Shown: piece by piece, positions 18,010-56,960 of the stretch
How the letters are laid out: each line of letters starts with the position of its first letter
Position numbering within the stretch: position 1 is the first letter of the stretch
NCBI GenBank assembly: GCA_016946835.1
Contig: JACVTC010000041.1
Coordinates: 917,501-981,500, forward strand
Direction: 5' to 3'
Source of the DNA: Neocallimastix lanati (nom. inval.)
Taxonomy: Eukaryota > Neocallimastigomycota > Neocallimastigomycetes > Neocallimastigales > Neocallimastigaceae
Length of the DNA stretch: 64,000 nucleotides
Position numbers and translations under genes: made by a program
Notes under the pieces: generated by a model
What the model saw: only the letters and a program-made list of their open reading frames with translations
Databases searched by the model: none
Told to the model about the DNA's origin: nothing

Positions 18010-18953
18010 ATTATTAGAAATAAAAATTCATTTATATAAAGATATCTATACATTTTTTTAAAAAATTCTTTCATAAAAAATTCATTGGATATCTTATAAT
18101 ATTATATATAATTATTACTGAAAAAATAAAAACAATTATATGTAAATATTTTTAATAATAAATAGAAAAATAAATAAATGCTCAGATTATTTAAACGCAT
18201 AGGATATAATTTATAAATAAATAGAAAGATTTAATTCAGAATATCAATAAATACAATTTTAAAAAGAAATATACAATAAAAAAGAATATTTCATAAATCA
18301 TATTTATTGTATTTAAAAATTTAAGTTTATCTACTATAATTTCCCATATTCCAAAATTTAAAGTATTAATAATTATTGAGCTTTTTTTTTATTATTTTAT
18401 TTTTTTATTATTTTTTTTAATAGTTAAAAGTATAGATATAACCGCAATAGATGCTAAAAAACTATAATTGAAGAAATAATAAAAATAATTAATATTTATA
18501 TATAATTTTCACAGATTATTATTTAAGAACTTCTTATAATTTTTATAATTAAATAATCAAAATTAATATTAATTTAATAATACTAAAATAATAATAGAAT
18601 ACATAAAACTATGAATTAAGTATCATTGCTAAAATTATCAAATGATGTAAAATATATAAAACTAAATAAAATATAAAATTTAATAAGATCTTGATTTTAA
18701 TTTTTTTTTTTTTTTTAAAAAAACCTTTTTTTTTTTTTTTTTAATAAAAATTCTACTTTATAGTGTATTATTAAATAAAGATATATTAATCATTATTAGG
18801 AAAAGATCTAAATATATTTGAGAGAATGATAAAATAATAATAAATCTTTTAAATTTTATTAATACCGATTTGATTAAAAAATATAAAGAATTTATAATTA
18901 TGAGATAATAAAATTATTTATATTTCGTTAAAACAAAAATTAATATTTAAAAA
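17404..18953. other. AT-rich spacer, about 1.5 kb
   Basis: Upstream flank of the 11-exon gene. It contains an A tract of about 40 bases (near 17968-18007), a T tract opposed to an A run near 18700-18740, and no recognisable gene. Confidence 0.6.
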
Positions 18954-18976
18954 GTGTTGCATTTCAGTTAAGTTTC

Positions 18977-19658
18977 CTGATCGACTTTCGTTAGTATCAA
19001 ATCTTCACGATTTTCCCCTCTAGTTTTACGTGAAAGGTTAGGGGTTAAATGATACTCAGGGGGATCGTGCATTTCGAAATAGTGCATTTCGTAATGTGGC
19101 GTACTTGTTTTTTAATAATTTAATAAGTATTAGTTAAATAAATGATAATTAAATAAATAATAAATATTCTTTTTTTTTATATATATAATTTATTGATATT
19201 CAATTATAAAAATATTTTTTTATAATAATAATAATAATTTTTTAAAATTCTTTTTTAATAGAATATATTATTATTTCTTTTGAAATAATAATTTTTTATA
19301 TATTTATTTATGATTGTATAGAATATTTTAAAAATGTATGACTTTATTTTAAAATTTTATAAGCCACATTGCGAAATGCATGATCTCCATACTCAGGTAG
19401 GTATGTTTTCTATATTTCTAATACTTTAGAATCCCATTGCATAAGACTTCTCTGAGAGATTACAGTTTCCAGCTCCTCTGGGATGGCAAGGAGACCACCT
19501 ATAGTGGGCTCTGCTTTCCCTTGAGGATCGCGAACAGTGCTTCTATATGGAGTTTCTTTGCTTATGGGGAGTTGAGAGCGTATTTGTATGGCAGTTAAAC
19601 ATACACCCATATTAACATATGGGGGTGACAAAAGTCTTTAGTCTATAAAAAAAAAATA
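18977..19658 (+). mobile_element. A-tailed retroposed element with 14-bp target-site duplication
   Basis: The 14-mer TTCAGTTAAGTTTC occurs at 18963-18976 and again at 19659-19672. Just before the second copy lies an A-rich tail (about 19647-19657). Long direct repeat plus 3' A tail is the signature of target-primed reverse transcription, so this looks like a SINE or a 5'-truncated LINE. Without the inner MITE and its duplication it is about 345 bp, much less AT-rich than its surroundings. An open frame of 73 codons on the minus strand (19410-19631) has no family I know and is probably fortuitous. Confidence 0.65.
19061..19388. mobile_element. MITE (family A) with 9-bp target-site duplication, Mutator-like
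   Basis: Left end GGGATCGTGCATTTCG (19061-19076), followed by a second GTGCATTTCG and TAATGTGGC. The right end read on the other strand is GGAGATCATGCATTTCG, then CAATGTGGC. Direct repeats ATACTCAGG flank it at 19052-19060 and 19389-19397. The left arm carries an extra copy of the GTGCATTTCG box relative to the right. Nine-bp duplications are typical of Mutator-type transposases; none is encoded here, so it is non-autonomous. It sits inside the A-tailed element at 18977-19658. Confidence 0.8.
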
Positions 19659-20181
19659 TTCAGTTAAGTTTCATTTTAGAAAATATGGCGTCTCAAAAAT
19701 TTAATAAATAAATTAATAAATAAATAAATTTAATAAATAATGTCAAATTAGGGCTAAAAATTATTTTATTTGTATTATACTTTTTAATATTTATATAAAA
19801 TATATATTCTTTAAAAATAATATATTTTTGAAATAATATAAAAAAGCATTTAAAAAAAAAAAAATTTTTTTTAATTATTTTTTACTTATATTTAATTATT
19901 TGCTTTTTGAATTTAATTATTTATCATGAAATTGGTATTAATTATTCAATCTCTTTAATTATGAAGTGTTTAAGAAAATATCTTATTTTTAAATAAAAAT
20001 ATAATATTTATTTAATTATTTGTTATTTTTATTTAACTATTTATTTATTCTGGATAAATCTATAAACTTTATAAATATTCATTTATTAATTTATAATTAA
20101 ATGATATTTAAAAATTTATGGCTATAATTTACAACAATATAAAAGCCATATTTTGAAATGTAGTTTTCCAAAATGCAATAC

Positions 20182-20958
20182 ATTCTTGTATTTACATTTT
20201 ATATAATATCAAAATAAAAATTATTTTTGAATATTAAATTTCATTAATAAATTAAATTCCTATATATACAATAAGTATGTATTAGGTGATTATTTTGAAT
20301 TAGGAAAAGATTTTTATTATTAGGTAAAAATACAATAGTATTATAATTATAATAGTATTATGCCTACTTATATAGTATTTAATATATATTTCAAAGTAGA
20401 AATTCAAATATACTTATAAGAATTTTTGTTAATGAAGAAGACATATTATGAGAAAATAAAAGAAAAAAAAAGAAAAAAAAAAATATTTAAATAGGTGAGA
20501 TATATACGATATTTAGTTAACTTCATTATATTGCAAAAAAATATATTTATAAAAATCGCAATTTTGAAGATATATTAAAAAGAAATTTATATTTAAATTC
20601 ATTCTGTATATATTATATATATATTATTATAAATATATAATTATATCAATATTCAATGATAATAAGTAAACTATATGTATATATATGATTATTTTTTGTA
20701 GGATACTAATTAGATTATATTAATGCTTTTAATTTGAATAATGCTAATATTTGAATTAAGAATAATTGAATTAAATATAATTATATATATGTAAATTAAA
20801 TATTAAATTTTATACTCCTATTGTTTAAATAAAAAATTTTCATATTGTTTTTTAAAATCTGATTTTATTTATTTTTATTTTTATTTTTATGTATTACCTA
20901 TAAATTTGCATTTCAATATATTTTAAATTATTTTTGATTTAAAAGACTGATATTATAA

Positions 20959-35879: not shown

Positions 35880-38800
35880 AATTAGTAATTTTATTTTAAT
35901 TAATATTTTTAAATGAAAAAAAAAAAAAAAAATAAAGATTTTTTTTTTTACCATCTTTCCATGCTACAATTAGGATTACAACTGTGATTTGCAAAACGTG
36001 CTATACTTCCTTTTTGATAGGCATCAATTACTTTACCACTTTCAAAATGAATAAAATAAAATGATTTCAAATCTTTGTAAACGGTTTCTAAACGTTTATT
36101 ACAAGCTTTCAATGACATTACTTCACCAGTATATTCTATAATTAATTCATCTTTTTTAATTGGTTTTATAGTCTTCAACCCGTAACCTTTAGAGCCAGAC
36201 TTTTTTATTTAGTAATTTTACATTAATTTTTATATCATTTTAAATATTTATAGTTTAAAAATTTTGTTAATTAATTGTAAATTAATAAATATATTAATAA
36301 TTACTGATTATTAATCAAATATTATATGTATATATTTAAATAAATATTATTAATAATTTACCCAAAAAACTTTTAATTGTTTAGATTTTTTATCATAACG
36401 CTGAAAACGCTGATTTGAACACTTTTCATTACATTTACAAAGTTGTGGATCACATTCTATAAATAAACTACGATTTATACAGCCAGAACCACAATTTTCA
36501 CCTTCTTTACAATCACAGGGTATCGAAAGACTTTTTAATCTAATCTCACAGTCTAAATATATATCTATATTCATAAATAAATATATAAAGATTATAATAA
36601 GATAAAAAAAAAAAATTATAATTTACTATATATGAATGTTATGATAATTATAATAATAATACTATTATTATATTAATTAATATTTACTTTGATTTAATAT
36701 TTTAAATTTTGATGGTAATTCATATGGAACTACTTCAACCATCTAACAAATGAATTAATAAATAAAAAAAAAAAAAATTATAGCATTAAATATGATAATA
36801 TTTTGAATACATAGGATTTTAAAGTCTAAAATTTATTAATCTAGTTATTATAATTTAATTTATATTAAAATTTTATATTAATATATTACTTTTTTAAAAT
36901 GAGGATCTTGTGAAAGTAAATAAATATCAATTGGGAGCTGAAAATCTTTAACACTATTAATCAAAACTTCACCATGATGTTTAAGTTCAGGAAATTTAAA
37001 ATTCTTGATTTCATCAAAAATTTTATTATTATGAGATTGGGATGAAGAAGATGAAGTTATTTTTCTTCTTTTAATACCAACTCGACTATCTTCTGAATAT
37101 AAGCCATATTCTAAATATTCCTTTCTTGTTGATAAAGGTGTATCTAAACAAGTATAATAATATTTGTTTTTCTCTAATTTATGATATGGATAGTATTTTA
37201 GTGGATCTTTTAAAATATTTATAATATCCATATAAGATTTCAATCCATGAGTTTTACTTTTTGATATGAAATCATATAAACAATCTTCTATTATTTGATT
37301 ATCATCAATTATATTTTTTATATTTTTTTTATCTCTCTCAAATACTTCATTAATATTGTCTGTCTCGGATATATTTCCATTTTTAATTTTATAATTATTA
37401 TTATTATTATTTCTGTTTTTGTTTCCTTCATCTAATGCCAGTAATAATTCTATAAATATATTTTTGATTTTATCTTTTGAGGTATTATTAATATGATTAT
37501 TTAAAATTTTTGTTCTTTGTAGTATTTTTTTATCAATAGGATCTTTAACTATTTTCCTAACTAGTGATTCACTCTTTACCATTGCCTTTTTAAATTCTTT
37601 TTTTTGGATTAGTTTAGATGAAAAAGATCTTAATTGATAACAATTTTCTGTTTTTACTTTTTTAAATGTTTTACTACTTTTACTAGGTTTCACATTAAAT
37701 TTTTTAATGCCCTTTTTAATATTCCTTTTATTCATAATTTCCTTTCTTGTTTGGGAAGTTGTACCTTCAATAACTTTTTTATTTGAACTATATTTATGAA
37801 TCAAGCGACTATTTTTTTTAAAGATCATTGATTCCTCTTTTTCATTTTTAATTTTTAAATTTTCAATCTTCTTTTGAATTCTCCTACTTCTCCTTAATGT
37901 TCGATTTTCACTTATATTATTCATTTCTTTTTCATCATTACATTTTGTTTGATTTTCACTTTTATTATTTACTTCTTTTTCATCATCACATTTCATTCTA
38001 TTTTCACTTTTATTATTCATTTCTTTTTCATCATTACATTTTGTTTGATTTTCACTTTTATTATTTACTTCTTTTTCATTATCACATTTCGTTCGATTTT
38101 CATTTTTACTATTCATTTCTTGTTCATCATTACATTTTGTTCGATTTTCACTTTTATTATTTTTTCCCCCTTCGTCATATTTTATTTGATCTTCACTTTT
38201 ATTATTTACTTCTTTTTCATCATCACAATTCATTCTATTTTCATTTTTATTATTCATTTCTTCTTCTTCATCATATTTTGTTCGATTTTCACTTTTACTA
38301 TTTATTTCTTTCTCATCGTCACATTTTATTTGATCTTCACTTTTATTATTTATTTCTTTCTCATCGTCACATTTTGTTTGATCTTCACCTTCATTATTCA
38401 TTTTTTTTTCATTATCACATTTTATTTGATCTTCATGTTTATTATTTATTTCTTTTTCGTTATCATATTTTTTTTGATCTTCACTTTTATTATTTATTTC
38501 TTTTTCGTTATCATATTTTATTTGATCTTCACTTTTATTATTTATTTCTTTTTCATTATCATATTTTATTTGATCTTCACTTTTATTATTTACTTCTTTT
38601 TCATCATCACATTTCATTCTATTTTCACTTTTATTATTCATTTCTTTTTCATCATTACATTTTGTTTGATTTTCACTTTTATTATTTACTTCTTTTTCAT
38701 TATCACATTTCGTTCGATTTTCATTTTTACTATTCATTTCTTGTTCATCATTACATTTTGTTCGATTTTCACTTTTATTATTTTTTCCCCCTTCGTCATA

Positions 38801-40633
38801 TTTTATTTGATCTTCACTTTTATTATTTACTTCTTTTTCATCATCACAATTCATTCTATTTTCATTTTTATTATTCATTTCTTCTTCTTCATCATATTTT
38901 GTTCGATTTTCACTTTTACTATTTATTTCTTTCTCATCGTCACATTTTATTTGATCTTCACTTTTATTATTTATTTCTTTCTCATCGTCACATTTTGTTT
39001 GATCTTCACCTTCATTATTCATTTTTTTTTCATTATCACATTTTATTTGATCTTCATGTTTATTATTTATTTCTTTTTCGTTATCATATTTTTTTCGATC
39101 TTCACTTTTTTTATTTATTCCTTTCCCATTGTCACATTTTATTCGATCTTCACCTTCATTATTCACTTCTTTTTCACCATCACATTTTATTCGATCTTCA
39201 CCTTCATTATTTATTTCTTTTTCACTATTACATTTTATTCGTTTTTCAATTTTATTATACATTTCTTTTTCACAATTACATTTATCATTATTTTTTTTAT
39301 CATTCATTACTATCTGTGATAAATCATCATTATCTTCTAGGTTTATTACTAAATAATTCTTTCTTTTCTTACCTTTTTTAGATATTTTATTATTCCTTTC
39401 ATCATTTTTATCATCTATAATATTTATATCTGGTATATTATTATTTTCTTTATTTTTTCTATCAATAGCCTTAATATTAGTATCTCCTTTTAATAATTTG
39501 TTTTTTATTGAAGTTAAATTTTTTCTTTTTATCTCTTTTTTAGATTTATGATTTTTTTTATCATTATCTATTATAAAGACATCTGGTATATTAATATTTT
39601 TTTCATTTTTTTCATTAACAACTTGAATTTCATTATGGTTTTTTAATAAGCGATTTTTTCTCTTTCTACTTTTTTTGGATTTTTGAATTTCTTTTTTATC
39701 ATTTATATTTTCATCAATAGTTAAATCTAATATTTCAATATCATTTTTTTCACTTTCATCATAAGTTTTAATACCATCATTTTCTTTCACCAGTTTAGAA
39801 GTATTTTTTTTTATTCTACCTCTTCTTGATTTCCTATTTTTATTTTCGTCGCTTTCCTCTTTTTCCAAATCATTTTTTAATATAATTCTTTTATAATTTT
39901 CTTTAGTTTTATCAACGAATATTTCAATTGTTATATTTGGCAGACTTCTATATATTTGATTTTTTTCATTTACGGTATCATTATTTATCAAATTAGACAT
40001 TGATAATGGATTTAATTGATTATCATTTAAAGTATTTTTTGTATTTTTATATTCTATAGTATTATCTTCGTTTACGTTATTGCATTTAGTTTTATCATTA
40101 ACATAATTCAAAATATCTTTTCCTAAAAATGGTTTTGTTCTTATTAATTTTTTATTTAAATTTTCATTCTCTTGAACAATCTTAAAACACTTTTTATCAT
40201 TTAATTTTAATAGTTTTGAATTTGAAATTCTATTATCTTTGGTCTCAATTTTTACTTTCATTTTTTTTAATTCTTCATTTATTGTATCTTTCCATTTATT
40301 TGAAATTACTAATTTTTTATTCAATATATCATTATTATTTTCATGTTTATTTAAATTATTATTATCTAAAATTGAAGGATTTTCCTCAAATTTTCCTAAA
40401 TTTATAACATCTATATTATTTATTACATTATTATCAGTTTTATTGTTGATATCAATTTTCTCCATTTTATCAATATGATGGTATCTCTTAATAGAATTAT
40501 TGATATATAGGTTATTACTTTTATCTTTTGTCATTTTATTTGTATTTTCGTTTTCATTTATATTCTCTTTGTCAGTACCTGTTTCTAAATATGAAATATT
40601 TGAAGATTTTAGAGTATTTTCTAATTTACTCAT
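34615..40633 (-). CDS. ASH1-type SET-domain histone H3 lysine methyltransferase
   Basis: Exons: 40633-36890 (3744 nt), 36742-36688, 36552-36362, 36199-35952, 35762-35495, 35388-35227, 34857-34615; all phases agree, 1636 aa. The catalytic unit lies in the small exons: AWS (CDCKEGENCGSGC, FIECDPQLCKC, CSNQRFQR), SET (GSKGYGLKTI, ELIIEYTGEV, RFANHSCNPNC, ELLYDYNFHSF) and post-SET (CNCGSKNCRGIIG). The YDYNFHSF and CRGIIG wording is that of ASH1/ASH1L, an H3K36 methyltransferase, rather than SETD2. The first exon encodes 1248 residues of Lys/Asn/Glu/Asp-rich disorder with about 27 copies of a 16-aa repeat (37925-39255) and three looser units ending in SRKRKN-like basic patches. The C-terminal 150 residues are basic and unrecognised. 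Confidence 0.88.
34923..35131. repeat. TTTTTA hexanucleotide microsatellite in a SET-gene intron
   Basis: About 34 nearly perfect copies of TTTTTA lie in the last intron of the SET gene (34858-35226). Because the unit is a multiple of three, long F/L- and F/Y-repeat frames appear on the plus strand; they are artefacts. Confidence 0.95.
35790..35878. repeat. AAT trinucleotide microsatellite in a SET-gene intron
   Basis: A run of ATA/AAT units of about 85 bases lies in the intron between the SET exon (35952-36199) and the post-SET exon (35495-35762), just upstream (in gene sense) of the acceptor. Confidence 0.9.
37925..39255 (-). repeat. 48-bp coding repeats with a 621-bp higher-order duplication
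   Basis: Tandem 16-residue units of the form KCDDEKEINNKSEDQI fill the middle of the first exon of the SET gene. On top of this, about 37950-38474 recurs almost unchanged at 38571-39095, an offset of 621 bp (207 codons), including the odd 15-residue unit with EGGK. The offset keeps frame, so the gene tolerated a recent unequal exchange. Confidence 0.9.
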
Positions 40634-40701
40634 TATTAATAAATATAATAAAATTAAAATATATATATATTAAATGAAATTCAAATAAATGTACCCTTAA
40701 A

Positions 40702-55106: not shown

Positions 55107-55511
55107 CTTAGACTATTACTATTAATTAACTTTATTTAATTAATTTTAATAAAGTATTTCTCAATAGAACGAATTATTCTGATTAATTGAATTATATTGT
55201 TGAAAAATGTAAATTTCTAAAATAAATTTACTTTTTGTTATTTTAAAAAATAAAAATTATTAAATTATATAATAAGAGATTTAATTAAATTATATTAAAT
55301 ATATTATATAAATTATGAATTATTAATTAAAAATATAATTTATATATATTTTATATATTTTAATATAAAAATTTTTTTATCATTTTTTTAATAAATTAAT
55401 TTATTTTTTTTTTTTTATTAAATTTTATTTAAAAAAATAATATAAAAATTAAGAAATACCAAAAAAAAAAAAAAAGACAAAGAAGAAAAAAGAATAATAA
55501 AAATAAAAAAA
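55107..55511. promoter_or_regulatory. Shared divergent upstream region of PSMA5 and RTT109
   Basis: The only sequence between two start codons pointing away from each other, so both promoters and 5' leaders lie here (inference). AT-rich with T and A runs; no TATA element or proteasome-type box can be singled out in this composition. Confidence 0.45.
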
Positions 55512-56960
55512 ATGAAATCTTTTTTAATAAATGCATTAAATAATCTTTTTGGATATGCAAATATTGATTTATACATTATAAGTAGTAGGCCAGAGAAAGA
55601 AGCGTTGTATTCGAAAAAGCAAATTAATAAAAAGAAAAAAGAAAATTACAATATATATGATATGAGAAATGTTTTAATATTAGCTGCAAACAAAAATAGA
55701 AATAAATTAGATGAAAAAAACTATGATACTATTTTCAATTCAGGAATTCTTTGTAATGAATATATAAATTTGGAAGAAAACAAAGTAATATTATACATAT
55801 CAAAAATAGACACTTCAGGTTGGGAAAATCTCAAAAGACAACCTCTTTCTCTTATACGGGCAATTATATTAGGCTATTTGAGTTATTACCAAAACTTATA
55901 TAAAGATACAGGTGTAAGTGTTACTCTTCACCTATACACAAGAGCAAAACCAAATTATCTTTTTCCTACTTCAGATGATGCCAATAATACAGATAAACAC
56001 GTTTTAACAGATTCTGAATTAATAAATTGGTGGATAAAAACTTTGTCGCATTATCCAAAAGTTTTTATTCCTGAAAGTGGATATTGGTATTGTCCTACAG
56101 GTGAAAGAATAGGTCATTTACAAACAGTTATGAATGAAAACCATAATGAAGATATTAAAAATGCATTGAAAATTAATACATCCATATGTCCCTGGACTTG
56201 GGGATATCCATTTGAAAAATCATCGTATGCTCTTGAAACCATTCCTCAGTTCCCGGATGATCCTAAGAATTCATTACTTCACAGTAAGAAAAGAGCATCA
56301 CTTATTCATGAAAGAACAACTGTAAGAGAGTTTTTTGAATATTTAGCAATTGAAAATTTATCTGGAACTGTTTCTGCATGTATGATTTTAAATATTCTCT
56401 CTTCATCAGAGAAAAAAAAGGATTTTAAAAAGAATAATTCACAAGTTAATATAGATAAAGTAGACTATGATAAATTAATTGATTATGTATTATCACTTAA
56501 TTATGCGTTAGAAGAAGATGCTGAAAATTCTTCAAAAGCTCTTCATGAGTATTTACAACAATTAGTAAAGCAAAAGAAAATTATTCATTTTAATTATAAA
56601 TTAAATAAGGAATTTGAGGAGGAAGAAGAGGAAGAAAAAGAAGAAGAAAAAGAAAAAGGTATAAAGTTTTCTGAAGCAATCCATGTAAATAATTTACAAG
56701 GAAGTATTAAAAGAAAAAATGTAAATGATATTCAAGGATTAATAAAAAAGAAGAAAATAACTTCAACACAAGAATCAAATAATAATTGTATTAATAATTT
56801 GCAAGGCTTAGTTAAAAGAAAAAAAGTCACAACTTCACAAGATTCAGCTAATAATATTAATAATATTCAAGGTCTATTAAAGAGAAAGAATCCAACTGTT
56901 CAAAAATCTACAAACAATGTTAACGATGTTCAAGGACTCATTAAAAGAAAACAAAAATAA
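55512..56960 (+). CDS. RTT109: Rtt109-type histone H3 lysine 56 acetyltransferase
   Basis: Single exon, 482 aa. Family wording: VILYISKIDTSGW (92-104), LIRAIILGYLSYY (114-126), LHLYTRAKPNYLFPTSDDAN (139-158), KHVLTDSELINWWIKTL (162-178), YWYCPTGERIG (191-201), PWTWGYPF (227-234) and IPQFPDDPK (244-252), whose last Lys corresponds to the autoacetylated Lys of yeast Rtt109 and whose Asp pair lies in the active site. The enzyme acetylates new H3 with Asf1 or Vps75 during replication and repair, in the nucleus. The C-terminus has a Glu-rich run (368-381) and then five copies of QG(L/S)(I/V/L)K(R/K)K at 396, 408, 431, 453 and 474, ending two residues before the stop. Rtt109 is confined to fungi, which supports the organism call. 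Confidence 0.88.
   Translation: MKSFLINALNNLFGYANIDLYIISSRPEKEALYSKKQINKKKKENYNIYDMRNVLILAANKNRNKLDEKNYDTIFNSGILCNEYINLEENKVILYISKIDTSGWENLKRQPLSLIRAIILGYLSYYQNLYKDTGVSVTLHLYTRAKPNYLFPTSDDANNTDKHVLTDSELINWWIKTLSHYPKVFIPESGYWYCPTGERIGHLQTVMNENHNEDIKNALKINTSICPWTWGYPFEKSSYALETIPQFPDDPKNSLLHSKKRASLIHERTTVREFFEYLAIENLSGTVSACMILNILSSSEKKKDFKKNNSQVNIDKVDYDKLIDYVLSLNYALEEDAENSSKALHEYLQQLVKQKKIIHFNYKLNKEFEEEEEEEKEEEKEKGIKFSEAIHVNNLQGSIKRKNVNDIQGLIKKKKITSTQESNNNCINNLQGLVKRKKVTTSQDSANNINNIQGLLKRKNPTVQKSTNNVNDVQGLIKRKQK

What the first reader, a model, noticed from the sequence alone, without database searches (positions are those of the whole stretch)
18954..20181. Three-level nest of mobile elements with readable target-site duplications
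A 14-bp direct repeat (TTCAGTTAAGTTTC) plus an A tail marks a retroposed element at 18977-19658. Removing it rejoins a sequence that then pairs with 20150-20181 as the terminal inverted repeat of an older MITE-like element. Inside the retroposed element sits a third element (19061-19388) with 9-bp duplications ATACTCAGG. The layering dates the insertions: outer MITE first, A-tailed element second, inner MITE last.
Basis: partly seen in the sequence, partly recalled or inferred. Interest (0 to 1): 0.75.

Follow-up and report, generated by a model that had tools for sequence, protein, structure and literature searches.

The report
Nested transposons with a telomere-motif target
Three mobile elements sit one inside another here, and the innermost belongs to a family of small DNA transposons that prefers to land a fixed distance from a short sequence resembling this organism's telomere repeat.

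Summary
In detail: an A-tailed retroposon (18977-19658, 14-bp TSD) sits in one terminal repeat of an older MITE-like element (my bounds 18950-20185), and a 328-bp MITE (19061-19388, 9-bp TSD) sits in the retroposon. Relatives of the layers occur apart elsewhere in the 199-Mb genome.

The surprise is the inner layer. MITEs of this family sit at the same 9-bp site (GATACTCAG) in about 14 copies of the retroposon, in both orientations; 117 copies show the uninterrupted site. A wider preference covers it: TAACC starts 19-21 bp outside the element end, about 10 bp beyond the TSD. In flanks fetched after the test was written down, 6 of 54 had it at 18-21 versus 0.55 expected; it led about 47,500 5-mer/position tests. 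TTAGGG arrays, the same repeat, lie at contig ends.

So: an ordinary nest made by a new variant of MITE, probably Mutator-type, with a fixed-offset target preference. The transposase and the reader of the motif are not identified.

The parts
18950..20185 (.). Outer, oldest MITE-like element (about 540 bp without the insert and its extra TSD), interrupted in its left terminal repeat
   Evidence: Rejoined left arm pairs with right arm (2 of 5000 null; 459 of 3000 under stricter scoring); relative L039 with uninterrupted arm; right end GAATGTATTGCATTTTG is 3 substitutions from the A-end of the inner family
18941..18949 (+). Putative degenerate left TSD of the outer element (TAATATTTA)
   Evidence: 7 of 9 identical to 20186-20194, read
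20186..20194 (+). Putative degenerate right TSD of the outer element (TTGTATTTA)
   Evidence: read
18926..18930 (+). CGTTA, i.e. TAACG at outward position 20 from the outer element's left end; one base off the TAACC target motif
   Evidence: suggestive only
18963..18976 (+). Left 14-bp TSD of the retroposon, TTCAGTTAAGTTTC
19659..19672 (+). Right 14-bp TSD of the retroposon
18977..19658 (+). A-tailed, 5'-truncated, SINE-like retroposon (345 bp without the inner MITE and its extra TSD copy)
   Evidence: Three full copies elsewhere start at GTCATCCAG and give about 412 bp, with A tail and own TSDs; window copy 8.5% from the consensus of 12 others
19036..19040 (+). GGTTA, target motif inside the retroposon, 10 bp before the insertion TSD
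19052..19060 (+). Left 9-bp TSD of the inner MITE, ATACTCAGG (phase in other copies: GATACTCAG, 19051-19059)
19389..19397 (+). Right 9-bp TSD of the inner MITE
19061..19388 (+). Inner, youngest MITE, 328 bp, both ends of the B type (GGGATCGTGCATTTCG / CGAAATGCATGATCTCC)
   Evidence: 234 B-ends and 149 A-ends of the family genome-wide at up to 3 mismatches

Best explanation
A MITE-like DNA transposon (18950-20185) was hit in its left terminal repeat by a 5'-truncated A-tailed retroposon (target-primed reverse transcription, inferred). The retroposon was then hit by a second, younger 328-bp MITE of a family with 9-bp duplications. That family prefers targets of the form GGTTA-N10-[9-bp TSD], equivalently [TSD]-N10-TAACC, in either orientation of the element. 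The retroposon carries one such site (GGTTA GGGGTTAAAY GATACTCAG) and so acts as a repeated landing pad. Shown: the nest, repeated use of one site in both orientations, and the motif enrichment. Inferred: the family is Mutator-type, and its transposase, or a host telomere-repeat binding protein that tethers it, reads TAACC(C) one helical turn from the cut.
For: Nest. Same-site insertions: 5 B-end junctions and 4 A-end junctions to GATACTCAG, plus window, L068, L071, L154 and L159, against 117 uninterrupted sites; about 0.00015 would be expected at one retroposon position for 234 MITE ends. TSDs read on both sides in window, L068, L069, L070 (7 of 9), L088, L089. Motif: held-out flanks 6 of 54 with TAACC at 18-21 versus 0.55 expected, P 2.4e-5, and 0 of 54 with the reversed motif GGTTA there; best of about 47,500 5-mer/position tests, 12 of 74 at 19-21, and 11 of 71 without three retroposon copies; 7 of 50 flank clusters at 18-21 versus 0.55. 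TTAGGG arrays at contig ends.
Against: Only about one B-end flank in six has an exact TAACC at the right distance (12 of 74; A-end candidates 3 of 38 at 19-20), so it is a preference, not a rule. The motif was noticed partly on 20 of those 74 flanks; only the 54 are held out, one of their 6 hits is a retroposon copy, 20 of the 80 planned flanks could not be fetched, and all come from the 100 listed of 234 ends. With loose clustering (E < 0.1) the AT-rich flanks nearly all merge and the excess is not significant (2 of 11, P 0.11). The MITE tree has few supported branches and does not by itself force more than one origin; retroposon-site MITEs cluster more than shuffled labels. No transposase was tied to these ends: two MULEs (L091, L092, about 2 kb read on each side of the domain) lack them.
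Confidence: 0.7

Rival explanations
1. An ordinary nest with no target preference: the retroposon sites coincide because one MITE-bearing retroposon was copied by retroposition or recombination.
For: The tree does not by supported branches exclude one origin, and retroposon-site MITEs cluster more than chance. Both elements are multicopy.
Against: Insertions occur in both orientations at the same 9 bp with duplications on both sides. Their ends differ (A-B, B-A, B-B, partial A). The same motif spacing is found at MITEs outside the retroposon (11 of 71).
Confidence: 0.1
2. The window's own composite (retroposon already carrying the MITE) retroposed into the outer element as one piece, so the MITE is older than this retroposon insertion.
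For: Nothing in the TSDs forbids it; the retroposon TSD encloses both.
Against: No sister composite with the same MITE was found among the rows compared: closest MITE 91% and outside the retroposon. None of the five other site copies with both ends read (L068, L069, L070, L088, L089) has B-type ends on both sides. But two B-type ends are not rare in the family: 1 of 13 pairs, and 3 of 20 at up to 2 mismatches (L101, L104, L107).
Confidence: 0.18
3. The TAACC signal comes from a few unrecognised repeat families that happen to carry TAACC and happen to be hit at one site, not from recognition of TAACC.
For: Several TAACC flanks belong to recurring sequences, compared by eye: the retroposon, a second repeat (L030, L153), a third (L109, L026), and an AATTTAATTTAACCCTT context (L101, L107, L108, L147).
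Against: Different contexts share TAACC at the same spacing; 7 of 50 clusters at E < 1e-3. Repeated hits at one site in several unrelated repeats would itself need a recognised feature.
Confidence: 0.15

Closest known systems
Mutator superfamily (maize Mu; MULEs and Mutator MITEs)
   Same: 9-bp TSD, terminal inverted repeats, many short non-autonomous copies. The host genome has at least 150 places with the MULE transposase domain PF10551 above its cut-off; the two proteins scanned also have FLYWCH.
   Different: Maize Mu has a weak consensus in and next to the TSD (SW::SWNNNNNWS::WS) and an open-chromatin preference (PMC2774946, abstract start and passages). Here the signal is a defined 5-mer 10 bp outside the TSD. 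No transposase has been tied to these ends.
Dada DNA transposons
   Same: DNA transposons that hit one site in a multicopy sequence; for Dada-U6 a sequence at a fixed distance from the TSD was proposed to take part in recognition (PMC3706591, passages).
   Different: Dada has 6-7 bp TSDs, targets snRNA/tRNA genes, and the Dada-U6 target motif is shared with the element's subterminal repeats. Here the TSD is 9 bp and neither TAACC nor GGTTA is in the first 60 bp of the 5 ends checked.
Pokey and its mPok MITEs (piggyBac) in Daphnia rDNA
   Same: A family with MITEs that inserts at a specific site of a multicopy sequence as well as elsewhere (PMC4912750, abstract).
   Different: Target is rDNA; piggyBac normally makes 4-bp TTAA duplications (recalled).
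Nested plant LTR retrotransposons that target specific regions of other elements
   Same: Preferred places for nested insertion inside another mobile element (PMC6911290, title and start of abstract only).
   Different: LTR retrotransposons in plants, not a DNA transposon with a base-precise site.
SINEs
   Same: Short, multicopy, A-tailed retroposon with variable 12-16 bp TSDs and 5' truncations.
   Different: No tRNA, 5S or 7SL head found by Rfam or ARAGORN; internal TTTTT at base 92 of the consensus is awkward for an RNA polymerase III transcript (general knowledge).

Membership tests
MITE (non-autonomous TIR DNA transposon) | Short, too small to code for a transposase, terminal inverted repeats, TSD, many copies | tested here: met
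   328 bp, TIRs, TSD, 234 B-ends genome-wide
Mutator superfamily | TSD of about 9 bp | tested here: met
   9-bp TSDs exact at window, L023, L030, L033, L053, L088, and with one mismatch at the other 7 of the 13 pairs listed (which only lists pairs with at most one mismatch)
Mutator superfamily | Autonomous relative encoding a MULE/DDE transposase with the same ends | tested here: inconclusive
   L091 and L092 lack the ends.
SINE | Short, A-tailed, TSD-flanked, non-coding, multicopy | tested here: met
   longest open stretch of the consensus 61 codons
SINE | Mobilised by a LINE | not tested
   Inferred from A tail and TSDs only
SINE | Head derived from a polymerase III RNA (tRNA, 5S, 7SL) | tested here: not met
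   No Rfam match in the window region or in L076, L078, L081; ARAGORN none in 20 loci. A GGATCGACCC stretch resembles a B box by eye only
Dada | 6-7 bp TSD in snRNA or tRNA genes | tested here: not met
   9-bp TSD; target retroposon has no small-RNA match

The most novel reading that the evidence does not exclude
A eukaryotic DNA transposon family reads the host's telomere-repeat unit (TAACCC), directly or through a telomere-repeat binding protein, and inserts one helical turn away from it. It thereby uses internal telomere-like boxes, including one inside an abundant retroposon, as scattered landing pads.
Probability: 0.35. Interest if true: 0.75.

Novelty: new variant of a known kind. Interest (0 to 1): 0.5.

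Why it matters
Many DNA transposons choose targets loosely. A family with a simple, testable fixed-offset target code, found from raw sequence, gives a tractable model of how a Mutator-like transposase or a tethering host factor picks sites. It would also explain why one retroposon keeps being broken at the same base, and it warns that coincident insertions need not share one origin when nests are dated.

Tried and rejected
Outer and inner elements as close relatives: under strict scoring their terminal repeats are no more alike than random pairs (1204 and 1426 of 3000). The outer right end is 3 substitutions from the A-end and its left flank has TAACG at position 20. I keep this as suggestive only.

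Hits to the outer element of 71-83%: of 6 looked at on the left side, only L039 shows an arm; I count only L039 as a clear relative.

RNA origin of the retroposon: no Rfam or ARAGORN match.

Autonomous partner: L091 and L092 carry FLYWCH+MULE proteins but not the MITE ends within the 4.5-4.7 kb read.

Rarity of two B-type ends as an argument against a retroposed composite: dropped, because the later sample has several. I raised that rival from 0.15 to 0.18 for this reason.

Literature: nine library searches listed no paper whose title or abstract start describes fixed-offset TAACC targeting or SINE-like elements of anaerobic fungi. One search returned 0 papers. I read passages of three papers and the abstract and outline of one.

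A genome-wide spacing count (ACGATCCCCN{5,35}TAACC) was asked four times and never answered, machine busy.

Full report
Setting. The window is C346:917501-981500 of a 199-Mb, 762-contig assembly, 10-29% GC in 2-kb steps. An alpha-SNAP gene in the window has its closest named relatives in early-diverging fungi; four unnamed relatives (sources jgi, lgn, ena) are 89-95% identical. An anaerobic gut fungus fits size and GC (Pecoramyces sp. F1 is given as 106.83 Mb and 16.07% GC in the abstract start of PMC6414434, seen). This identification is inference.

The nest. An exact 14-bp duplication brackets 18977-19658, which ends in an A-rich tail. An exact 9-bp duplication brackets 19061-19388, whose ends are inverted repeats (14 of 3000 null pairs). 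Removing 18977-19672 rejoins a left arm that aligns with the reverse complement of the right arm (score 15, 2 of 5000 null; 459 of 3000 under stricter gap scoring). L039 aligns through the junction without the retroposon.

Copies. Of 20 loci fetched around hits to the whole query, 12 hold the retroposon without the MITE and 8 have MITE sequence abutting retroposon position 74-76; the choice favours composites because the query held both. In 8 of the 12 intact copies I see a convincing 12-16 bp TSD; in the other 4 the best repeat is low-complexity or not adjacent. Three start at GTCATCCAG, giving a full length near 412 bp and 44% GC in this AT-rich genome. The window copy is 5'-truncated and 8.5% from the consensus of the other 12, which range from 2.3 to 7.6%.

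The inner family. Its two ends differ: A (GAATCTAGTGCG...) and B (GGGGATCGTGCA...). One search lists 13 MITE pairs with a TSD of at most one mismatch, 6 of them exact; I see no motif shared by their TSDs. Elements with two B-type ends, like the window's, are 1 of those 13, and 3 of 20 at up to 2 mismatches. Genome counts at up to 3 mismatches: 234 B-ends and 149 A-ends.

One site hit many times. Patterns find 5 copies with a B-end and 4 with an A-end joined to GATACTCAG in the retroposon. Five more are seen directly: window, L068, a degraded L071, and from one side only L154 and L159 (the last if its end is read 11 bases further out). That is 14 places, against 117 uninterrupted sites. Six have the TSD read on both sides, L070 with 7 of 9. 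By chance about 0.00015 would be expected. Both orientations occur, so a single insertion copied along with the retroposon cannot explain all. The MITE tree is compatible but weakly resolved: plus-oriented rows need 5 changes, minus-oriented 4, supported branches force only 1 each, and the rows outside the retroposon are clustered (0 of 500 shuffles as low; one of its six plus rows, L069b, lies at another place in the retroposon).

The target preference. In the first flanks TAACC stood at outward position 19-20 (10 of 71 B-end candidates, 3 of 38 A-end candidates; some candidates are not true ends). Together with the 20 they are 80 of the 100 listed of 234. Six of the 60 were near-identical to others and dropped. 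Of 54, 6 had TAACC at 18-21; elsewhere there were 8 over 62 positions, so 0.55 expected, P 2.4e-5; one of the six (L154) is a retroposon copy. The reversed motif GGTTA occurred 5 times, never at 18-21. On all 74 deduplicated flanks, 20 of which had suggested the motif, TAACC at 19-21 is the strongest of about 47,500 tests (12 of 74, P 2.8e-14); without three retroposon copies 11 of 71, P 7.8e-15. After clustering homologous flanks 7 of 50 clusters have it at 18-21, P 1.8e-6; with looser clustering almost all AT-rich flanks merge and the test has little power (2 of 11, P 0.11). The retroposon site fits exactly: GGTTA (19036-19040), ten bases, then the TSD. So does L030 in another repeat (GGTTA-N10-TAAGAATTT). 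The motif can face either end of the element.

What reads the motif. TAACCC is the complement of TTAGGG, which looks like this genome's telomere repeat: 152 exact (TTAGGG)4 matches against 1 in the reversed control. Of the 100 places listed, 45 of the 50 minus-strand ones lie within 500 bases of a contig start, 3 on C212 are internal and 2 on C269 lie 30 kb in; of the 50 plus-strand ones, the 5 on C200 lie at its end and the other contigs' lengths were not seen (lengths). A transposase domain or a telomere-repeat binding host protein could position the cut one helical turn away. I have no evidence to choose between them. Neither TAACC nor GGTTA is found in the first 60 bp of five element ends, unlike Dada-U6, where target motif and subterminal repeat match (PMC3706591 passages).

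Family. 9-bp TSDs and TIRs fit Mutator; MULE transposases are abundant in the genome but were not linked to these ends. By coordinates alone, C666 has facing B- and A-ends 6.1 kb apart around a PF10551 domain. This is a lead, not a result.

Verdict. Observation and layering stand. As a nest it is ordinary. The fixed-offset, telomere-like target preference is the finding, and it can be tested directly.

Noticed in passing
L017, L030, L153 and L026, L109: Two further repeats appear to carry MITE insertions within a few bases of the same homologous position, like the retroposon site; compared by eye from printed flanks.
   Followed up: partly
G000 (table): Many copies of the retroposon 3' part have identical scores and spans (20 of the 40 scored rows at 317 bits over 5-259), which suggests a recently active subfamily; the window copy is more diverged.
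   Followed up: no
L104: One MITE has TAACC at outward position 20 on both sides.
   Followed up: no
L090 1-300: Sequence next to a MITE-retroposon junction reads like the end of a LINE endonuclease domain (by eye, no call).
   Followed up: no
L069 1085-1260: A second MITE of the family sits in the 5' part of the same retroposon copy, away from the main site.
   Followed up: no
window 36878-40669: A 1263-aa open frame with long tandem repeats, open on the opposite strand too for 509 aa.
   Followed up: no
window 55446-56957: Open frame with a HAT_KAT11 (histone acetylation protein) match, E 1.4e-34.
   Followed up: no
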